NCBI GenBank assembly: GCA_027491155.1
Contig: JAIXWR010000046.1
Coordinates: 124,001 to 188,000, forward strand
Reading direction: 5' to 3'
Source: Verrucomicrobiaceae bacterium
GTDB taxonomy: Bacteria > Verrucomicrobiota > Verrucomicrobiia > Verrucomicrobiales > Akkermansiaceae
Length of the DNA stretch: 64,000 nt
Part shown: one piece after another, positions 19,928-30,804 of the stretch
Position numbering within the stretch: position 1 is the stretch's first letter
How the letters are laid out: each line of letters begins with the position of its first letter
Notes under the pieces: generated by a model
Told to the model about the DNA's origin: nothing
The model's input: only the letters and a program-made list of their open reading frames with translations
Databases searched by the model: none
Made by a program: the position numbers and the translations under genes

Positions 19928-22900
19928 TCACCCCACATCGGCATACACGCTCCGGCCGTCTTCCGGATACTTCTCCAGAACATGCTGGAACAAGGCCCCG
20001 CACTTGGACTCGAAGAGATCCGCCGTGTATTTCTCCGGCAACCCGGCATCCAGCATCTTCTCGATCTCGACCCGCACCGCCGCCCGCGTGGTCCGCTTGT
20101 TCCGCCACGCCAGCACCAGCAGCTCGGTCTTCAGCTTCGCCAGCAGGTCCTTGCAGACCTTCTTGATCGCCTCGACCTCCTTCGGATCGAGTTCCGGCCC
20201 CGGCCGGGTCAGGATGTCGAAGACCGCCAGCTCTTCCTCGCTGACGTTCTCGCGCAGGTGCCCTTGCTCCTCTTCGTTGAGGTCCTTGGAAAACTTCACC
20301 AGCTCCTCGAACAGCGCCTCGATGCTCATCGCGCCGCTGTTGTAGGCCTCGATCATTTTCTGGAAGCGGTCGAGGTAGTCGTAGCGGCTCGCGTTGAGGC
20401 GGATCATGTTGTCCAGCTTCCGCTCGATCAGCGCCCGGAGCTGCTGCGCTTCCAGGTTCTTCGTTTTCGAGCGGGCGAACTTCCGCTCCAGCACCTCGAA
20501 GTCCACCCGGCTCAGGTCGATCACCTTCGCCTGCGCTCCCGGCTCGACGTGCGGCTCCGCGAGGATCGATTCGTCCAGCTTCTTCCCGATCTCCGCCAGC
20601 ACCGCCGTGATGTCCACCGGGTCGGCCTGCGCGCGGATCGCCTTCTCCAGCTCGCGAATGACCTGCGCCTTCGGGGCCAACTTCGGGATGACCGGGTCCG
20701 GCATCACCGCCTTGTAGAGCCGCTGCACGTCCCGCGCATGGCCGAGAAAGCCGTCCTTCACCTCGTCCGTCCGCATCAGCCGGTCCACGGCCGTCAGGAA
20801 GTGCCCCACCGAATCCTTCGCCACGGATTCGACATCCACGTTCTGCTTCCGGCAAAAGTCCGCCGCCTGCTCCAGCGCGATCTTCAGCGCCTCGATCAGC
20901 TCGGTCTTGTCCTTCACCGGCAGCTCGCCGCCGCCGCGGCCACTGCCGTAGATCGCCAGCGCCTTCTCCAGCTCTTGGAAAACGTTCGCGTAGTCCACGA
21001 TCAGGCCGTTGACCTTGTCGCCATACACCCGGTTCGCCCGGGCGATGGTCTGCATCAGCGTGTGGCCGCGCATCGGCTTGTCCAGGTAGAGCGTCGAGCA
21101 GCTCGGCGCATCGAATCCCGTCAGCCACATGGCGCAGACGAAGACGAGGCGGAACGGGTCCTCCGGATTCTTGAACTTGCTCTCCAGGTCCTCCTTCACC
21201 ATCCGCTCGCGGTGCGGCAGGATGTCGAAGCCCTTCTTCGCCATCTCGGCGATCTCGTTCTGCCCCGGCGACACCACCACGGCCATGTCGGTTTCCGTGA
21301 GGTTGCGCAGCCTTTCAAGAAGCACCGGATAATCCCCATCCTGCGGGTTCAGCCGGTCCAGCGCCGACCGCACCCGCGCCGTCTCCGCCTCCCACTCGGC
21401 CCGCGCCTTCTCATACATCTTCAGCGTGGTCAGCTTGTCGATCGAGACCACCATCGCCTTCCCCTGATACCCGCGGTTCAGGAAATGGTGCACGATGTCC
21501 TTCGCCACCGCGTCCAGGCGCTCCTCGCGGGTGATCAGGTGATAGCGCTTGCCGAGCACCTGCTTGAGCTTCTCCTCCTGGTCGTCGTCCAGCCCGGCCT
21601 CGTCGATCACCTGGTAGATCTCGTCGTTCAGCTCCGGGTTGGTGATCTGCAGCTCCGGCGTCCGGTTCTCGTAGAACAGCGGCACCGTCGCGCCGTCCTC
21701 CACGCTCTGGCGGAAGTCGTAGATGCTCACGTAGTCGCCGAAGACCTCCCGCGTCCGTTCCTCGCCGGCGATGAGCGGCGTGCCGGTGAATGCCACGAAT
21801 TTCGCGTTCGGCAGCGCGGTGCGCATGTTCATCGCCAGCGTGTCGTACTGGCTGCGGTGCGCCTCGTCGGTCAGCACGATGATGTCGTCCCGCTCGCTCA
21901 ACACCGGATGCAGCGTCCACGGCTCGGTGCGAAACTTGTGGATCAGGGTGAACACGTAGCGGTGGTCCTCGCCCAGCAGCTTGCGCAACTCCCGCGTGCT
22001 GCCCGCCTGGCACAGCTCGGTGGCAGCCCCGCAGGCGAGGAAGGTCCGGTAAATCTGGGTGTCCAGCTCCTGCCGGTCGGTGATCACCACGAAGGTCCAG
22101 TTCCCCTTCAACTTGCGGAACACCTTCTCGGCGAAGAACACCATCGAGTAGCTCTTCCCGCTTCCCTGCGTGTGCCAAAATACACCCACGCGTCCGTCCT
22201 TCGTCGTCTTCAGCGCCTCGACCGCGCGATTGACGCCGAGGAACTGGTGATTGCGCGCCACCAGCTTGCCCACTGCGCCCTTGCTCTCCGAAAAACGGCA
22301 ATAGTTCTCCAACAGATCCAGCAGCCGACTCTTCTCGCAGGTCCCGCGCAGCAGCGTCTTCAACGACACGTCCGGCAGCTCCTCCTCCGCCGCCACCTTC
22401 TTCCAATCGGCGAAATGCTCCCACGCCGCCGTGAGGCTGCCGATCTTGCTCTGCACGCCGTTCGAGACCAGCAGGAAGCCGTTGTAGTGGAAAAGCTGCG
22501 GGATCGTCTCCCGGTAGTCGGCCAGGTTCTTGTCAAAGGCCTCCCGCACGTTCACCCCCGGCTTCTTCAACTCGATCAAGACCAGCGGCAGCCCGTTGAC
22601 AAAGCCGATCAAGTCCGTCCGCCGCGTGTAGAGCTCACCCGCGATCCAGAACTGCGAGACCAGCAGGAAATCGTTCGCCGCCGCATCGTCCCAGTCGACC
22701 ACCCGCACCACCTCCGTCCGCTGGCCGCCGCGCTCGCGGTCCGGAATCTTCACCTTCACGCCGCCGCGCAGCAGCTTGTCGATCTCGCGATTTCCCTCCA
22801 CCAGGCTCAGCGCCGAGCGATCCCGCGTCAGCTCCTCCACCGCCGCGTCCAGCGCCTCGGCGGGAAGCTCCGGGTTCAAGGATTGGAGCGCCGGCTTCAA

Positions 22901-23089
22901 CCGGCCCGTCAGCACCACCGCCCGCTTCGCCTCCCGGCCAAGTTGACTCACCAACCCGGCCTGCCCTTCGGAGCCTTGGCGATAAAGGGACCACTCGTCG
23001 TAGGCATTCACCGAGTCCCAACCCAGCTCATGCTCCATGAGCTGGATCGCCGGCTGCTCGATCAGCTGGTCTTCGGTGTAGTCGTTCAT
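19928..23089 (-). CDS. hsdR: Type I restriction-modification system, restriction/translocase subunit HsdR
   Basis: This 1053-residue protein is the motor and nuclease of a type I R-M enzyme. It cuts unmodified foreign DNA after ATP-driven translocation. The N-terminal nuclease has FVNGLPLVLIELKKP, a PD-(D/E)xK site with E173-K175. The helicase has Walker A TQGSGKS (307-313), DEAH (408-411) and FVAFTGTPLIAGE. The C-terminus (about 700-1053) is the helical region that docks on HsdM/HsdS. It is the last gene of the operon: its ATG overlaps the stop of the nitrilase-like gene by 4 bp (ATGA). Usually hsdR stands next to hsdS or hsdM; here RT and nitrilase genes intervene. Its base composition is GC-rich like the chromosome, unlike the two genes before it. 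Confidence 0.95.
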   Translation of the reverse strand: MNDYTEDQLIEQPAIQLMEHELGWDSVNAYDEWSLYRQGSEGQAGLVSQLGREAKRAVVLTGRLKPALQSLNPELPAEALDAAVEELTRDRSALSLVEGNREIDKLLRGGVKVKIPDRERGGQRTEVVRVVDWDDAAANDFLLVSQFWIAGELYTRRTDLIGFVNGLPLVLIELKKPGVNVREAFDKNLADYRETIPQLFHYNGFLLVSNGVQSKIGSLTAAWEHFADWKKVAAEEELPDVSLKTLLRGTCEKSRLLDLLENYCRFSESKGAVGKLVARNHQFLGVNRAVEALKTTKDGRVGVFWHTQGSGKSYSMVFFAEKVFRKLKGNWTFVVITDRQELDTQIYRTFLACGAATELCQAGSTRELRKLLGEDHRYVFTLIHKFRTEPWTLHPVLSERDDIIVLTDEAHRSQYDTLAMNMRTALPNAKFVAFTGTPLIAGEERTREVFGDYVSIYDFRQSVEDGATVPLFYENRTPELQITNPELNDEIYQVIDEAGLDDDQEEKLKQVLGKRYHLITREERLDAVAKDIVHHFLNRGYQGKAMVVSIDKLTTLKMYEKARAEWEAETARVRSALDRLNPQDGDYPVLLERLRNLTETDMAVVVSPGQNEIAEMAKKGFDILPHRERMVKEDLESKFKNPEDPFRLVFVCAMWLTGFDAPSCSTLYLDKPMRGHTLMQTIARANRVYGDKVNGLIVDYANVFQELEKALAIYGSGRGGGELPVKDKTELIEALKIALEQAADFCRKQNVDVESVAKDSVGHFLTAVDRLMRTDEVKDGFLGHARDVQRLYKAVMPDPVIPKLAPKAQVIRELEKAIRAQADPVDITAVLAEIGKKLDESILAEPHVEPGAQAKVIDLSRVDFEVLERKFARSKTKNLEAQQLRALIERKLDNMIRLNASRYDYLDRFQKMIEAYNSGAMSIEALFEELVKFSKDLNEEEQGHLRENVSEEELAVFDILTRPGPELDPKEVEAIKKVCKDLLAKLKTELLVLAWRNKRTTRAAVRVEIEKMLDAGLPEKYTADLFESKCGALFQHVLEKYPEDGRSVYADVG

Positions 23090-24033
23090 CGTCTGCGCTT
23101 GTTCTTCCCAAGTCGAATGCGCGTGATGGCGTCACTACCCTCGAATCCTGGTGGTGTCGGTTTGTAATCCTTAGATCCCCTCTGAAGTCCGTACAGCTTC
23201 TTCTGATGGTCGCGCAGCTTCGCTAGTGGCAGCTCCATCGTGAGAAAGGTCTGGTTGTCACCTCCCTTCAATCTCAGGGGGTTCATCTTCTCTGTGGGCG
23301 AAGGGCTCACGACTCGAGAATCACCGTACTGAGCGCAATTCACTTGAATAACGTAGCAATGCAAGTCACGGGCTGCGGATTCCACGATGTTTGAGAAATA
23401 GTTTACATCCTTGTTGAACTCAGAGCATACAATGAAATCAACTAGGCCCTTGAATACGCAGCGATCATCTAGGCTCGCTAGCTCGTAGCAGTTGTATACC
23501 GCGAAGCTGGCACCTCGCCACTGGAAGAGCTGGTAGCGGCTTCGTTGATCCAATTCTGGAACTTTCAGCGAACTTTGCTCGATTTGAAATCGCTCTTCCG
23601 GCGAATAGTGCCTCTTCAGCCGTCGGACTGGGGAGCACTCGTTTGAACCGTTCGCGGCTTTGAATGGAAGCGCTGCCAGAAGCTCGTTCCACGCCCGATC
23701 TCGATCATCGATTCTGTGCTCCAATCCACAAATTACACCTATCTGGTGCACCTTCGCCCAATCTGTAACGAAGGAAGCCCAACGGTGGGGCACCGAAACC
23801 TCTGGAAGTATAAGAAGGTCAATCCCTTTGTCAGGGTTCCGCGTTCCGAATTTCACTACATCGTTGAGAAGCTGGTGAAGCCCCTTCTTTCGTTGGCGAT
23901 CAATCTTTGGGTTGTTCTCGATACTTCTCGTAATGTTCGCTTCGCTGACCTCGAGGTGTCCAACTGCAATCCTAAGCTTCTCATGAAGATTGGGAGTTCT
24001 CGCGGCGATGGAAATCTTTCGGAAGCTGCTCAT
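23086..24033 (-). CDS. Nitrilase-superfamily protein coupled to the reverse transcriptase
   Basis: The 315-residue protein has the carbon-nitrogen hydrolase pattern: Glu78 in LLILPEVSVP, Lys140 in RRLKRHYSP, and Cys182 in FAVYNCYELAS. This gives a complete candidate E-K-C triad. The C-terminus is basic (KNKRRR). In UG1/DRT type 1 defence systems a nitrilase domain is fused to the C-terminus of the reverse transcriptase; here it is a separate gene immediately after the RT gene with an ATGA overlap, and it also overlaps hsdR by ATGA. The DNA is visibly AT-richer than hsdR. It likely acts with the RT in phage defence (inference). Whether it hydrolyses a substrate or serves as a structural or oligomerising domain is unknown. 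Confidence 0.85.
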   Translation of the reverse strand: MSSFRKISIAARTPNLHEKLRIAVGHLEVSEANITRSIENNPKIDRQRKKGLHQLLNDVVKFGTRNPDKGIDLLILPEVSVPHRWASFVTDWAKVHQIGVICGLEHRIDDRDRAWNELLAALPFKAANGSNECSPVRRLKRHYSPEERFQIEQSSLKVPELDQRSRYQLFQWRGASFAVYNCYELASLDDRCVFKGLVDFIVCSEFNKDVNYFSNIVESAARDLHCYVIQVNCAQYGDSRVVSPSPTEKMNPLRLKGGDNQTFLTMELPLAKLRDHQKKLYGLQRGSKDYKPTPPGFEGSDAITRIRLGKNKRRR

Positions 24034-26005
24034 GATTTCTTCTTCTTTGCGACTCGTCGGGCTGTGCTGCTTTCTACATCCGGGTGAGCATCTCCGTGGA
24101 ACTTCTCGTAGATCGTGTTGGCACCGCTAATAAGGTCCCCGAAATCTGGATCCGAGAAGTCGGACGAGACGTAGTTGAGACACTCATCAAAGTGCACGAA
24201 TCTAGGTGACCGCTCCGCCTTGGAAGAACTGATCGCCAAGCGCCCTAATTCGACCGGTTTGGAGAGATTCCCCTGAAAGTCTGTGTAATTTGCCAGGGGA
24301 TCAGAAACTAGGTGGTGCCGGATGAGATTTGATTTTCTCCACATTCTAGCGGCCCCGAAGTCATATTCATCCCCGAGGATGGCGAATGAGATCTCAAAGC
24401 ATGCCTCAAGGTGCCTGATGAGACTCTCCCGCAGAAAACCCGCCACGTTACCTTTGCTTCTGCCTTCCTCGTCGAATGCTTTTGTGGATTGCACCTTGAA
24501 AATCTCTTTCCGAATTTCCTCCTTGAATCGAGCGGCGGAATCAAGATCGCCAGCCACCACAAAAAGCCCCACCACCCGCTCCCAAAGATCCCAGAATGTG
24601 ATCGCATTGCTTCCCTTAAAGAACTTGAAGAGCTCACTCCAGGGGTCGGCCTCGAAATCACCATCGGTTGTCAAATAAAGCTGGGTTTGCTTGGAAATGT
24701 AGACTGCCAGCGCCCACCTATTGGCTGATATCGCCTTCACATTGCGAAATTTGTTCGCCGGCCCATCGTATAACAGGTCGTAGGCCACCTGCGCCAAGGG
24801 ACTATCGGATTCATCGACCGGCAAGAGACCAAAGTCACTCGCGTTCTCCTCAATTTGCTTTTGGAACTTTTCGAGGCCCGCAATCGAGTGTTCAGCATCG
24901 AAATACTGAATGGTACACTTCCGCTTTTGCAGAAAGAGACCCGGGCGAGAGCTAAGCTCGAAACGTTCTTCGCTGCCTTCGTTTCTGTCAGCGACTATCA
25001 CTCCGGGCGAAACGAGAATCTGTTCCATGAGATCCCTCACCGGATCAGCGCTCTCTGGAGGTCCTTGGAAGGGAATGACCATGAGAATATCATCAACGTA
25101 GCGCCCGTAGTACGATGGCCGCACCTTCTCCAGGATCACATCATCAAGAACCTTGAGATACCAGTTGGCGATAACGGGCGACGCAGACAGTCCGATTGGC
25201 AGACAAGTGGCCGCGCTTGGCAAATCCGGGTGGGTGATCTCCAACAATGGCGCTAAAGCACGCCGGTAGCCGCGGCATATTTCCTCAATGCAGCGGAAAA
25301 GTTTTCCACCAAACAGCGACTCTTCCATGAAGATCGCTTCTATCGGATTGGTTGGTTCTCTTCTTTTGATCTGCTGCCGCAGAAGATCCCAATCCAGTTC
25401 AATCCGGTAGTAGTACTCCTGTACATCCAACCCGATAAGACAGACGCTCGTGCCATCCTTCTCCAGAAGATCCCTAGCTCGCTGAATTCCAGTGTCCCTC
25501 CATTTGGCGTAGAGGTCGTGGTACTTTCTGAAGAGGTATCCTGAGTGATCTCGATCTTGCCCGACATACTCATGCAGACGAGATCCCATGCAGTGATCCG
25601 AGAGTTTGCTGTCGTAATACGGCCCTTCTGTCATCAGCCACAGCACGGACAGCAGATGGAGTTCAACTGGTCCATCGAAGAGGTAGTTTACGCGAGACAC
25701 CTGATGGAACGGCGCGCTCGTGTAATTACTGACAAATCCCCCGAGCCGATCGTCATGCCTCTCCCGGTCAACCGCCTTCGGGACCACTTCGTAGCGGATG
25801 CTATTGACCCAACCCAAGAACTCATTTGTCTCGTGAGGTGCATCGGATTGAACGACAGCCACAAAGGCGGCGAGACGCTCATGGAAATCGTCTCCTGAGT
25901 CGAATTCGGCAAGACGGCGACGCAGCGAGAGAGGGTGTTTCTCGTAATACACCATCTGCTTCAACTTCTTGTACGCGACCTGAATTCGCTCCTCGAGATC
26001 CAGAA

Positions 26006-26009
<4 letters not shown>
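24030..26009 (-). CDS. Defence-type (UG/DRT-like) reverse transcriptase
   Basis: This 659-residue protein carries RT palm motifs: LIGLDVQEYYYRI (Asp195, motif A), CLPIGLSASPVIANWYL (motif B-like), YGRYVDDILMVI with YVDD at 304-307 (motif C), and GLFLQKRKCTIQYF (motif D/E region). About 185 residues precede motif A, and some 280 mostly helical residues follow the RT core. There is no maturase or HNH domain as in group II introns, no retron VTG context, and no DGR repeats nearby. The adjoining nitrilase gene points to the unknown-group RTs of DRT systems, closest in logic to DRT1. It starts with an ATGA overlap on hsdS and ends with one on the nitrilase gene, so translation is coupled to the R-M operon. 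The class assignment is inferred. Confidence 0.9.
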
Positions 26010-27345
<1,336 letters not shown>

Positions 27346-27349
<4 letters not shown>

Positions 27350-28188
27350 TCGAGGGTGTCGGGGTTTTGGAGGGATTTCCGTTCCTCGGAGCTGAGGCGG
27401 CGTTCGACCTTTTTGACGTCCTCCTCGGGCGGCAGGGATTCCGGGCGGATGCCGCGTTCGAGCAGGGTGTTGCGGACGGCCTGGTTGTTGGCGATGTGTT
27501 CGCTGGAGATCCGCTCCTCCGTGAGCATCTGGTGCTGGCGGGCGTTGTGGATGGTGATCTCGGTGGCGAAGTCCTTGGCCTTGAGGATGATGGTGGGCGC
27601 GAAGTCGGCGAGCGGGCGGCCGGCGGGGACTTTCCACTGGGCCTTCATGGCCTGGGTGGATTTGCCGAAGAGCGCCTGATCGCCCTTGCTGCGGATCAGG
27701 GCGAAGTCTTCGTTGCCGCCGGTCTGCTCGAAGATCACGGACGAGAGTTCCTTTTCCGTGGCCGTGAGCTTCTGCCGGGCCTGGACGCGCTCGGTTTCCA
27801 GCAGGCGCTGCTCGATCAACTCCGCCCGGCGCGTCTGGACGGCGAAGTAGGTCTGGGCGAAGGCGATGGGCTCCTTCCGCGGGTCGCCATTCTGGGCGAT
27901 GAGGTAACAGGCGTAGCGGGTGAGCATGAGATCGTCGATCTCGCGCTCGGATCCGGAGCCGATTTGGACCATTTTGTTGACGTCAACAAAATGGTCGGAG
28001 ATGGCGTGGCCGGAGATCTCGCAGGCGGTTTTCGCCTTGGAGATGGCGGTCTGGTGGAAGTTCCGCCACTCGCTGTAGCCGAGCAGGTGCTGGAGATCGC
28101 GGGCGAGCCAGTATTCGACGCCGCTCTCCGTCTGCTGGGCGTGGCCCTCGAAGGTTTCGGTGAGGCTGTGGATGAGTTCCGGCTTCAT
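27346..28188 (-). CDS. dinD: DinD-family (DNA damage-inducible protein D) protein
   Basis: The 280-residue protein matches Din[69 protein letters not shown]. Escherichia coli DinD is SOS-induced and destabilises RecA filaments; DinD relatives often sit between hsdM and hsdS in type I loci. The start at 28188 overlaps hsdM by ATGA and the stop overlaps hsdS by ATGA. The much longer open frame upstream is within hsdM and is not used. A perfect 30-bp palindrome lies in the [10 protein letters not shown] codons (27967-27996). Its role in the R-M system is not known; coupling restriction or RT activity to DNA damage is an inference. Confidence 0.9.
27967..27996. promoter_or_regulatory. Perfect 30-bp palindrome inside dinD
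   Basis: The left half GACCATTTTGTTGAC is followed at once by its exact reverse complement GTCAACAAAATGGTC. It lies inside the dinD coding sequence and is AT-rich for this GC-rich gene. It could be the binding site of a dimeric regulator, a recombination site or a hairpin. No function is known. Confidence 0.6.
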
Positions 28189-29756
28189 GCGCTCAGGAGT
28201 TCCGCCACGTTGGCGGCGATGGTTTCCTCCAGCTCCCGGGCCTCGGCGTTGAGGACTTCGAGTTCCTCGTTGAGGGCTTCGAGCTTCTCCTTGAAATCCT
28301 CGTCGCTGAGGTCCTCTCCCTTGGCGACGCCGACGTAGCGGCCGGGATTGAGCGACCAGCCCTGGGCCTCGATTTCCCGGAGCGTGGCGGCTTTGCAGAG
28401 GCCAGGCACATCGACGTAGCCGGTGGCGTCGCCGAAGACTTCCTCCCATTTCGCCTCCGAGCCGTGTTCAAACTCCAAGTCCTCGCCGCGGTAGAAGCGG
28501 ACGACATTCGACAGGAACTCGATCTGAGCCGGGGTGAAATCGCGGTGGGCGCGGTCGAGCTGGCGGAAGATATGCCGCGCGTCGAGGAAGAGGACGGTGT
28601 CTTTGCGATCGGTGCCGGCCTTGGCCTTGTCGAAGAACCAGAGGGTGCAGGGCAGCGCGACGGTGAAGAAGAAATTCGAGCCGATGGAGATCATCACGTC
28701 CACGTCGCCGCTGCGGATCAGCTTTTCGCGGATCTCCTGCTCGGAGGCGCGGGCGTCGGCGGCGGAGTTCGCCATGACGAAGCCGGCGCGGCCGGTGGCG
28801 TTGAGGGCGGCGTGGAAGTGCTGGATCCAGAGGTAGTTGCCATTGTCCGTGCGCGGCAGGCCGAAGGCGTAGCGCGGGTCGTCGGCGAGGCGGTCCTTGT
28901 CGATCTTGCTGACGTTGAAGGGCGGATTGGCGAGGACGAAGTCGAAGCGGCCGACGGAGTCGTGGAGATCCTCGTAATAGGTATTTCCCTGGCGGATGTC
29001 GCCTTGCAGCCCGTGGACGGCGAGGTTGAGCCGGGCGAGGCGGCCGGTTTCGGTGACCCGCTCCTGGCCGTGGCAGGAGATTTCCCGCGTGGGGTTCTTG
29101 TGGTGGTTTTCCACGAAGCGGGCGGACTGCACGAACATGCCGCCGGAGCCGCAGGCGGGATCGTAGATGCGGCCGTGGTAGGGCTCCAGGATCTCGACGA
29201 TGAGGCGGACGATGGAGGTGGGCGTGTAGAACTCGCCGCCCTTCTGGCCCTCGGACATGGCGAACTTTCCGAGGAAGAACTCGTAGATCAGGCCGAAGGT
29301 GTCGCCGTCGTGCATCGGGATCGAGGCGATCATCTTGAGCAGCTCGGCCAGCGTGCGGCTTTCGAGGATCTGATAGGTCTTCGGCAGCACGTCGGCGAGG
29401 TCCGGGTTGTCGCGCTCGATCAGGCGCATGGCCAGGTTCACGCACTCGCCGAGGTTCACGCCTTCCGGCAATTGCAGCAGGTGGCCGAAGCGGGATTCCT
29501 CCGGGAGGTAAATCGCGCCCTTCGCATGGTAGTCGGCCGGGCCGATCTTCCGCCGCCCGGTGGACGGGCCGATGTCCTTTTCCGCCTCCGCAAAGCGGGA
29601 TTCCGCGTGGCGCAGGAAGATCAAGCCGAGGACGATGGGCGAGAATTCGGAGGGTTTGAGGGCGGCGTCCGCCCAGAGCTTGTTCGCCGCGGCCCAGAGG
29701 CGGGTTTCAAGATCGGAGTGGGAGTCTCCGGCGGTGGCGGGTTCGGTCCAATGCAT
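28185..29756 (-). CDS. hsdM: Type I restriction-modification system, methyltransferase subunit HsdM
   Basis: The 523-residue protein is the adenine methyltransferase of the type I enzyme. It has an N-terminal helical HsdM domain, GEFYTP at about 174-179, the SAM-binding motif DPACGSGG (199-206) and the catalytic NPPF (277-280). The C-terminus has a coiled-coil-like Glu/Leu stretch ([20 protein letters not shown]). The ATG at 29756 ([10 protein letters not shown]) was chosen because it gives the usual family length; the open frame extends far upstream into the HNH gene in another frame. It is the first of six genes joined by ATGA overlaps (hsdM-dinD-hsdS-RT-nitrilase-hsdR). The 91-bp gap to the HNH gene is the only intergenic space near the operon head. 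Confidence 0.95.
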
Positions 29757-29847: not shown

Positions 29848-30804
29848 TCAGGCGGATAGCCGGTGGATTCTCCAGCGGAGGCCCTCCGGGTCGGGATGGA
29901 AGGCCGGATCTTGCGGCAGTAGCAGCGCTTGGCCGGAGAGAGCACGGAGTTCCTTCTCCCCGTTCGACCGGCGCGGATCGACGAACCGGGAGACGTGCCA
30001 GTGATGGTCCGGTCCGGGAGCGATGATGTCGCGGTCCATCGCCCAGTGGTGGTTCTTGCAGAGGGCGAGGCCGTTGGTCGGGTGGTCGTTCCGGCTTTCC
30101 GCGAATGGAACGAGGTGGGCGGCGTCGATGAAGGAGACGTCACGGGCCGTGGGGAGCTTGATCCGCAGGCCGCAGGCAGCGCATTGGTGATCGTAGATTT
30201 CGAGGATCTTGCGGCGGAAGGCGGGGCTGCGGCCGTATTCGGGTTCGTCTTCGTGGAGGGAGGAGGATTGACGATTGTCGATTGTGGATTGCCGATTGCT
30301 GATTTGCCCGAGGAGAGCGGCGGCGTGCTGGGGGAAGTAGCGGGTGACGAGGGCTTCCCGCATCCGACGGCGGTTCTCGGGGATGGCGACGAGGAGGTCG
30401 AAGCCATCGATGAAGCGGGCGTGAACCTGACCGAAGTCGGAAACGCGGATTTCGCGACGAATCGGGGTGACGCCATCGGCCTCTAGCGCCTGCCAGAAGC
30501 CGTCCCCGGCGAGGTAGCGGAACGGGAGGTCGGGATTGCACTGATCGTTGTGCTTCCGGACGACGTCGAAGCGCGCCTTGAAGCGGTCGCGCAGCTCCTT
30601 GCACCAGGGGATGCGGTCGGGCGTGGCGAGGCCTTGGTCGATCAGATCGAACACCGCGAGCAGGAGCAGCGGTTTGTGCGGCTTCTCATGGGGCGGTCCA
30701 TCCGAAACCGGCGTGGTGCCGACGTTCAGGTCGTAGAGTCGTTCGATGGCCTGGGGGAGCGACGGCACGGTCGGGAAGTTAGAGATCGGGATAACGGGTG
30801 CCAA
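29848..30804 (-). CDS. HNH endonuclease upstream of the R-M operon
   Basis: This ~318-residue protein has an N-terminal helical region ([12 protein letters not shown]) and a C-terminal HNH nuclease: [47 protein letters not shown]. This Cys/His-rich layout resembles HNH restriction-associated proteins common next to R-M genes. The annotated start is a TTG at 30804; a GTG eleven codons further in is an alternative. Between the domains the sequence [13 protein letters not shown] is encoded by a GATTG-rich micro-repeat (about 30264-30306), similar to one at 31053-31078, and looks like an in-frame repeat insertion. It lies 91 bp upstream of hsdM on the same strand and may share its transcript. Confidence 0.85.
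30264..30306. repeat. GATTG-type micro-repeat inside the HNH gene
   Basis: GATTG followed by three or four variable bases recurs about every 8 bp (GATTGACGATTGTCGATTGT, then GGATTGCCGATTGCTGATTT). It encodes the low-complexity linker [16 protein letters not shown] closely similar run occurs outside genes at 31053-31078, so this appears to be a dispersed micro-repeat tolerated in frame. Confidence 0.6.

What the first reader, a model, noticed from the sequence alone, without database searches (positions are those of the whole stretch)
19928..29756. Reverse transcriptase and nitrilase built into a type I restriction-modification operon
Seen: hsdM, dinD, hsdS, RT, nitrilase-like and hsdR are consecutive minus-strand genes, and all five junctions are 4-bp ATGA overlaps. 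Known: UG1/DRT type 1 anti-phage systems combine an RT with a nitrilase domain, usually as one fused protein and as stand-alone operons. Here the two are separate and sit between hsdS and hsdR, so the R-M enzyme and the RT pair must be made from one coupled message. Inference: a composite defence system in which restriction products or DNA damage might feed or trigger the RT arm.
Basis: partly seen in the sequence, partly recalled or inferred. Interest (0 to 1): 0.92.

Follow-up and report, generated by a model that had tools for sequence, protein, structure and literature searches.

The report
Reverse transcriptase embedded in restriction operon
A bacterial DNA-cutting defence operon carries, between two of its core genes, what looks like a complete second defence made of a reverse transcriptase and a partner enzyme; related bacteria keep other genes, often defence genes, in the same place, so it is a new occupant of a known kind of cargo site rather than a new machine.

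Summary
In detail: hsdM, dinD-like, hsdS, RT, nitrilase and hsdR are consecutive minus-strand genes with ATGA at all five junctions. The hsdS start is probably 99 nt further in, so that overlap is doubtful. The RT is UG5-small, not UG1 (PADLOC E=1.9e-264 against 1.7e-8 for Drt1a): a class 3 DRT with its nitrilase as a separate gene.

The pair is a transferable cassette (51-52% GC; hsdM/hsdR 64-65%). Of five pairs with full-length RT, three lie between hsdS and hsdR (window, G277, G315), in two distant type I families; two (G783, G051) have no hsd gene in the upstream DNA fetched. In 16 of 16 informative relatives of the window's R-M operon this interval holds other ORFs, among them Septu, GmrSD, AbiE and caspase genes. 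Homology to hsdR starts within 16 bp of its start codon in 10 of 12 loci.

Best reading: layered defence, restriction first, then a protein-primed RT with nitrilase effector as an independent abortive backstop. PrrC-like guarding is possible but unshown; nothing supports restriction products feeding the RT. Modules embedded in type I operons are known (PrrC, RloF, TgvAB, DarTG2): a new member of a known kind.

The parts
28185..29756 (-). hsdM, type I methyltransferase, 523 aa, DPACGSGG and NPPF motifs
   Evidence: Pfam HsdM_N and N6_Mtase, PADLOC MTase_I E=4.9e-214, motifs; DNA homology to relatives
27346..28188 (-). dinD-like BRO-N protein, 280 aa; PADLOC family PDC-S13
   Evidence: E=1.2e-116; Bro-N; also between hsdM and hsdS in G877, and beside hsdS in G840 where the contig starts inside it
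26006..27349 (-). hsdS, specificity subunit; native start probably M34 (about 27250)
   Evidence: start correction
24030..26009 (-). reverse transcriptase, UG5-small (class 3 DRT), 659 aa, YVDD at 304-307
   Evidence: PADLOC RT_UG5_small E=1.9e-264; PDB profile hit to DRT1 9yfd over the RT core; Pfam RVT_1 only below its cut-off
23086..24033 (-). nitrilase-superfamily partner, 315 aa, E78/K140/C182
   Evidence: matches nitrilase part (632-892) of RT_UG5-nitrilase profile, E=5.2e-95; C182 aligned to DRT1 C1116; weak model matches nitrilase folds; no Pfam hit
19928..23089 (-). hsdR, type I restriction-translocase subunit, 1053 aa
   Evidence: Pfam HSDR_N, SWI2_SNF2, T1RH-like_C; motifs; 90% DNA identity to G013 from the start codon on
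23086..26009 (-). cargo cassette (RT + nitrilase) in the hsdS-hsdR interval, GC 51-52% against 64-65% in hsdM/hsdR
   Evidence: DNA similarity to G277 starts at the RT start codon 26009

Best explanation
It is a type I R-M operon that carries, in its hsdS-hsdR cargo interval, a complete two-gene UG5-small (class 3) DRT cassette. How it works: (1) one message gives HsdM, DinD-like, HsdS, RT, nitrilase and HsdR, with reading frames coupled by 4-nt overlaps (overlaps shown; one message inferred). (2) The R-M enzyme cuts unmodified DNA (inferred from intact motifs). (3) The RT makes protein-attached DNA without template (shown in print for DRT5S, inferred here). (4) The RT-DNA particle holds the separate nitrilase in a poised state, as the fused DRT1 does (inferred). 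(5) A phage that escapes restriction releases the nitrilase, which poisons the cell or its metabolism and aborts the infection (inferred; trigger and substrate unknown). The two arms are layered and biochemically separate; what joins them is common expression and common transfer.
For: UG5-small profile match, and the same for G277, G315, G051, G783 and partial G361. RT and nitrilase profiles each have DRT1 (9yfd) as best hit in the PDB; the nitrilase Cys aligns with C1116 and YVDD with the DRT1 RT site. Fused UG5 proteins have the same order, RT then nitrilase, and the gene border matches the domain linker. Both genes are under constraint between G277 and G783: RT dN 0.100, dS 0.972; nitrilase dN 0.062, dS 0.923 (other pairs saturated in dS). 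No intergenic space beside the RT and no Rfam match apart from 4 tRNAs, which fits an RT that needs no RNA. Cassette and R-M have separate histories: G277/G315 HsdR are 69% identical but 24-25% to the window's, while the window RT is closest to G277 (59%). The in-slot G277 RT and out-of-slot G783 RT are 81% identical and equally long, so no slot-specific domain is seen. In print: purified DRT5S makes covalent DNA without template (PMC13275509, section 5).
Against: No activity is shown for this locus. Only 5 pairs with full-length RT were found, all in one phylum because no other could be searched, so the 3-of-5 share is imprecise. In G051 the contig ends 325 nt after the nitrilase and in G783 inside the nitrilase, so what follows is unknown there. 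DRT1's priming residue S402 is reported not to be conserved in other class 3 DRTs, so the DRT1 switch may not carry over to a separate nitrilase. The RT model was too poor to use (mean pLDDT 40.8).
Confidence: 0.68

Rival explanations
1. Guard model: as PrrC in EcoprrI, the RT-nitrilase particle is held silent by the type I enzyme and is released when a phage anti-restriction protein inactivates that enzyme.
For: PrrC is likewise embedded in a type I operon and freed when T4 Stp inhibits EcoprrI (PMC2610378 passages; PMC3874165 passages). Recurrence in the same interval of two R-M families.
Against: Two of five pairs have no hsd gene in the upstream DNA fetched, and no HsdR like that of G315 was found in those two genomes at 1e-20 (the window's HsdR type was not sought in them by name). 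The 81% identical in-slot and out-of-slot RTs have the same length. The fused DRT1 protects E. coli MG1655 from its own plasmid-borne gene, though that host has its own type I system (recalled). TgvAB, another embedded module, kept its protection when HsdR was nuclease-dead, although tgvAB alone protected less than the whole cluster (PMC11411939 passages).
Confidence: 0.15
2. Hitch-hiking: the interval is merely a tolerated recombination site, and the cassette has no functional relation to R-M beyond being inserted without breaking the operon.
For: 16 of 16 informative relatives carry other ORFs there; hsdR 5'-end-like fragments lie among them in G013, G024, G886 and G002, as expected from repeated recombination. 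12 of 33 scanned cargo ORFs have no Pfam family and some with one are of no known defence kind.
Against: Many of the cargo ORFs that could be named are defence types, and reading frames overlap by 4 nt at both cassette edges in the window and G315, which suggests selection for joint expression.
Confidence: 0.12
3. Feeding model of the first reader: ends or fragments made by restriction, or DNA damage, are substrates or triggers of the RT.
For: Adjacency; a DinD-like protein lies in the operon.
Against: Class 3 DRTs, DRT5S included, need no template and prime on protein. The known DRT1 trigger network involves a phage ssDNA helicase, Dda. The dinD gene goes with the hsdM-hsdS part and occurs there in G877, whose interval holds GmrSD and other ORFs but no RT.
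Confidence: 0.03

Closest known systems
UG5-small DRT (PADLOC RT_UG5_small; DRT5S of Neville et al. 2026, PMC13275509)
   Same: RT family, and a separate nitrilase-superfamily partner that matches the nitrilase part of fused UG5 proteins
   Different: Here the pair is framed by hsdS and hsdR with 4-nt overlaps; the parts of the paper that I saw (outline, sections 5, 7, 9, 18, search passages) do not describe an R-M setting
DRT1 (UG1)
   Same: RT plus nitrilase with aligned catalytic residues
   Different: DRT1 is one fused 1229-aa protein; the profile match to Drt1a is weak (1.7e-8)
PrrC in EcoprrI
   Same: Effector gene embedded in a type I hsd operon (prrABD with prrC)
   Different: PrrC is a tRNA anticodon nuclease silenced by the R-M enzyme; no such silencing is known here
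DarTG2 in the EPEC type I locus (PMC12255303); TgvAB of V. cholerae VPI-2 (PMC11411939); RloF of C. jejuni (as cited in PMC11411939)
   Same: Separate defence genes embedded in the type I operon; DarTG2 and RloF stand between hsdS and hsdR, and TgvAB is described as similarly placed; [quoted passage not shown]
   Different: Their cargo is a toxin-antitoxin or a type IV enzyme, not an RT
AbiK-type RT near R-M genes (PMC8934634, one passage)
   Same: The authors remark that one AbiK RT seems, from its neighbourhood, to be part of an R-M system, so an RT beside R-M genes is not new in print
   Different: Another RT class; the passage gives no position between hsdS and hsdR

Membership tests
UG5-small class 3 DRT | RT best matched by the UG5-small profile over its length | tested here: met
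   E=1.9e-264, residues 4-649 to profile 3-627 of 631
UG5-small class 3 DRT | RT catalytic motif intact | tested here: met
   YVDD at 304-307, conserved in the 4-row alignment (YIDD in G277)
UG5-small class 3 DRT | nitrilase partner with Glu-Lys-Cys | tested here: met
   E78, K140 and C182 invariant in 4 of 4 aligned; C182 aligns with DRT1 C1116
[quoted passage not shown]
   needs purified protein; shown for another DRT5S in PMC13275509
UG5-small class 3 DRT | anti-phage activity | not testable with these tools
   needs a bench test
UG1 / DRT1 | best match to UG1 profile and RT-nitrilase fusion | tested here: not met
   Drt1a E=1.7e-8 against UG5_small 1.9e-264; separate genes
retron / class 2 DRT | dedicated noncoding RNA | tested here: inconclusive
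   no intergenic space beside the RT and only 4 tRNAs in the window at Rfam gathering scores, but an RNA hidden within the ORFs or of an undescribed family is not excluded; class membership is decided by the profile
Type I R-M system | HsdM, HsdS, HsdR with catalytic motifs | tested here: met
defence module embedded between hsdS and hsdR | gene(s) of a separate defence family in that interval of an intact hsd operon | tested here: met
   recurrence in G277 and G315
PrrC-type R-M guard | effector silenced by the R-M enzyme and released by anti-restriction protein | not testable with these tools
   needs a bench test; sequence evidence is neutral to negative

The most novel reading that the evidence does not exclude
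The DRT is a guard of the type I enzyme: the R-M complex, or its HsdR motor, keeps the RT-DNA-nitrilase particle dormant, and phage anti-restriction proteins release the nitrilase. This would be a reverse-transcriptase counterpart of PrrC, with the RecD-like helicase of the G277 operon as a further regulator.
Probability: 0.13. Interest if true: 0.85.

Novelty: new member of a known kind. Interest (0 to 1): 0.45.

Why it matters
It adds a DRT to the list of defences known to sit inside type I R-M operons. It also shows, with precise boundaries, that this interval behaves as an exchange site for genes, many of them defence genes, in Verrucomicrobiota. If the two arms act together, it gives a clear test of how a first-line and an abortive defence are paired in one operon. 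The separate nitrilase also lets the RT and effector roles of class 3 DRTs be studied apart.

Tried and rejected
UG1/DRT1 assignment: rejected on profile scores. Retron or class 2 DRT: set aside on the profile; an RNA inside the ORFs is not excluded. Pseudogene or chance insertion: rejected, since frames are open, motifs intact, the order recurs, and both genes are under constraint in the one pair of relatives close enough to measure. Viral carriage: three scans of IMG/VR and one tblastn of phage records gave no relative; the scans rest on two short peptide patterns each, and the same method found only 2 loci in genome contigs, so they may miss relatives. Plasmid records gave only distant hits: 5 records with the RT query, of which one E. 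coli and one Sinorhizobium record were opened and hold fused UG5-nitrilase proteins, and 8 records with the G277 nitrilase, including 3 Leptospira records (annotated as RT-domain proteins in the table) that I did not look into. Structure prediction of the RT failed in quality (mean pLDDT 40.8) and was not used; the nitrilase model is weak (54.6) and serves only as fold support. Promoter and terminator scan: 2 promoter-like and 4 terminator-like sites against 1.8 and 12.6 in shuffles, so no evidence either way. Literature: Mestre et al. 2022 (10.1093/nar/gkac467), the UG/Abi class paper, and Payne et al. 2024 (10.1101/2024.01.29.577857) are not held, so whether either already reports UG5-small inside type I operons is unknown to me. 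My searches listed no paper that I recognised as describing an RT between hsdS and hsdR; I saw capped listings (for example 20 of 254 papers) and opened nine papers: PMC8934634, PMC4244168, PMC2610378, PMC3874165, PMC11411939, PMC12255303, PMC12707154 and PMC13092281 for passages only, and PMC13275509 for sections.
Full report
Observation. Six open minus-strand ORFs stand in the stated order. ATGA forms a 4-nt overlap at each of the five junctions. PADLOC and Pfam identify hsdM, a dinD-like BRO-N protein (PADLOC family PDC-S13), hsdS, an RT, a nitrilase-type protein and hsdR; in Pfam the RT is below the RVT_1 cut-off and the nitrilase has no hit. One correction: in two relatives (L063, L076) HsdS residue 1 aligns with residue 34 of the window HsdS, and one PADLOC profile begins there. 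The native start is therefore probably M34, and the dinD/hsdS overlap may be accidental. The window lies on contig C20 of a 5.73-Mb genome, G000.

What the RT is. The best family is RT_UG5_small, E=1.9e-264, against 1.7e-8 for Drt1a (UG1). The nitrilase matches positions 632-892 of the fused RT_UG5-nitrilase profile, while the RT matches 24-597 of it, so the gene border falls at the domain linker. Fused UG5 proteins from one E. coli and one Sinorhizobium plasmid record and from G042 show the same order. Against the PDB, profiles of RT and nitrilase both have DRT1 (9yfd) as best hit: the RT core (E=4.1e-7) and the nitrilase, with C182 at DRT1 C1116 (E=4.5e-4). Foldseek with the nitrilase model (mean pLDDT only 54.6) lists nitrilase-superfamily structures in the 50 rows shown, at TM-scores of about 0.4-0.5.

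How such systems work, from print. Neville et al. 2026 (PMC13275509; outline, sections 5, 7, 9 and 18 and search passages seen) report that DRT1, DRT5S and DRT5L make DNA without template, primed on protein. In DRT1 both the RT and nitrilase sites are needed for defence, the DNA adducts promote dormant filaments, and T4 Dda helicase is necessary but not sufficient for triggering. DRT5S is taken here as UG5-small and DRT5L as the fused form, from the naming; I did not see the accessions.

Relatives of the pair. The RT was sought in 57, 387, 197, 273, 336 and 221 genomes (overlapping draws, all in this phylum; E cut-off 0.001, 1e-60, 1e-40 in the others). Pairs with a full-length RT were found in five genomes: G000, G051, G277, G315 and G783; in G783 the nitrilase is cut by the contig end. 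A partial, more distant UG5 RT is at a contig end in G361, beside an Eco57I-type methylase, Abi_2 and a PLD/SNF2 helicase; no nitrilase can be seen there. None of the 17 same-genus genomes has a strong match; a short one in G017 (1.1e-6, frame of 348 aa) was not examined and is taken to be another RT.

Where the pairs lie. G315: hsdM-hsdS-RT-nitrilase-hsdR, each junction a 4-nt overlap. G277: hsdM, RecD-like helicase, hsdS, RT, nitrilase, Schlafen-type gene, hsdR; 4-nt overlaps at hsdS/RT and RT/nitrilase, gaps of 402 and 123 nt before the last two genes. G051: NUDIX gene upstream, 325 nt downstream and then contig end; in those 325 nt the longest open run seen is about 70 codons, running off the end and not identified. 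G783: ATPase-like gene upstream (HATPase_c below its cut-off), contig end inside the nitrilase. Neither has an ORF of 80 aa or more in the fetched upstream DNA that matches the hsd proteins of the window, G315 or G277 by blastp, and neither genome has an HsdR like that of G315 at 1e-20. So 3 of 5 are in the hsdS-hsdR interval, and 2 of 5 have no hsd gene upstream.

Separate histories. HsdR of G277 and G315 are 69% identical to each other but 24-25% to the window's; HsdM shows the same split. The window RT is closest to G277 (59%) and G783 (58%), and G277 to G783 (81%). Cassette and R-M genes have thus been exchanged, and I infer that the cassette entered this interval at least twice. RT and nitrilase of the window have 52% and 51% GC, hsdM and hsdR 65% and 64%. 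The one pair of relatives close enough to measure, G277/G783, shows constraint on both genes (dN/dS about 0.10 for RT, 0.07 for nitrilase; dS saturated in the other 9 pairs of each gene).

The interval as a cargo site. Relatives of the window HsdR were sought in 317 genomes; 42, the window's own included, matched at 1e-100. I fetched 20 loci of those matches. In 16 of the 20, hsdS (whole or 3' part) and an hsdR gene lie on one contig; the other 4 (L064, L065, L069, L071) are cut. All 16 have ORFs of at least 90 aa between them, and none of these matches the RT or nitrilase. In several loci hsdR itself is broken or split (for example G718, G877, G886). Of 58 non-hsd ORFs listed (a few lie before hsdS or in cut loci), I scanned 33; 21 of 33 have a Pfam family at E<=0.001. 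These include caspase, DUF4268 and PDDEXK_4 (G013), AAA_15 and DUF6932 (G024), DUF3800 (G907, G856), PtuA-like AAA plus HNH (G286; PADLOC), AbiEi/AbiEii and a deaminase-like protein (G886), AbiEii (G841, a cut locus), GmrSD (G877, G765), PHP below its cut-off (G754), Schlafen (G840), DUF488 (G713), TauD (G013) and DUF2971 (G002). So many, but not all, of the nameable ORFs are of defence type; ORFs without hits may not all be real genes. At DNA level, similarity to the window hsdR ends within 16 bp of its start codon in 10 of 12 loci compared (not in L066 and L068). Similarity to hsdM ends within 21 bp of its stop in 6 of the 7 loci that show it; in the seventh (L073, G877) it runs on through dinD. 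Fragments like hsdR 5' ends lie among the cargo of G013, G024, G886 and G002 (42-85% identity), as if cassettes had been stacked by recombination.

A second R-M family. For HsdR of G315, 27 of 188 genomes, G315 included, matched at 1e-150. Of 12 loci fetched (HsdR identity 38-85% to G315 or G277), 2 have hsdS and hsdR adjacent with no cargo (L097, L102), 2 are unclear (L096, L103), and 8 have cargo ORFs; none holds the RT pair. Of 10 cargo ORFs scanned, 8 have a Pfam family, for example DUF4268 with PLDc_2, AAA_21 with DUF4276, PIN, and DUF3800 in an unclear locus.

Mechanism. The most economical account is layered defence: restriction first, then a protein-primed RT with a nitrilase effector as abortive backstop, produced from the same message. 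Shown here: anatomy, family, conserved catalytic residues, constraint, recurrence and exchange. Inferred: transcription as one unit, protein-primed DNA, nitrilase poisoning and complementarity. A PrrC-like guard is the most interesting rival. It is weakened by the two pairs without upstream hsd genes and by the equal length of an in-slot and an out-of-slot RT, but it is not excluded; DRT1 was tested in a host that has its own type I system (recalled), so that experiment does not decide it.

Known background. PrrC is embedded in the EcoprrI type I operon and silenced by it (PMC2610378, PMC3874165, passages). TgvAB (PMC11411939, passages) and DarTG2 (PMC12255303, passages) are embedded in type I loci; [quoted passage not shown] One paper remarks that an AbiK RT seems to be part of an R-M system (PMC8934634, passage). 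The kind of arrangement is therefore known; a DRT between hsdS and hsdR is what I did not find in the held library.

Limits. The sample is one phylum; the key UG/Abi paper could not be read; assembly breaks hide the downstream side of two pairs; no experiment is available.

Noticed in passing
L060-L079 (hsdS-hsdR intervals), window 23089-26009: The hsdS-hsdR interval of this type I family holds different ORFs, many of defence type, in 16 of 16 informative relatives of 20 loci fetched.
   Followed up: yes
L060:7848-8213, L061:2663-2956, L079:11026-11607, L070 (several): Stand-alone fragments like hsdR 5' ends lie among cargo ORFs, possible footprints of repeated recombination at the hsdR start.
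   Followed up: partly
L012:4886-8593: In G277 a 1235-aa RecD-like helicase (PADLOC PDC-S68) sits between hsdM and hsdS of the RT-bearing operon; T4 Dda, needed for DRT1 triggering in print, is a 5'-3' helicase too, and kinship between them was not tested.
   Followed up: partly
L073, L078: The dinD-like gene also lies between hsdM and hsdS in G877, and beside hsdS in G840 where the contig starts inside it.
   Followed up: no
L019:33-9771: A more distant UG5 RT in G361 lies next to an Eco57I-type methylase, Abi_2 and PLD/SNF2 helicase genes, cut by the contig end.
   Followed up: partly
window 29848-30804: HNH-type gene just upstream of hsdM (91-nt gap) with a run of degenerate CAATC repeats near 30300-30265.
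   Followed up: no
L021:103-3312: A fused UG5-nitrilase protein lies on an E. coli plasmid record that also carries tail-fibre genes.
   Followed up: no
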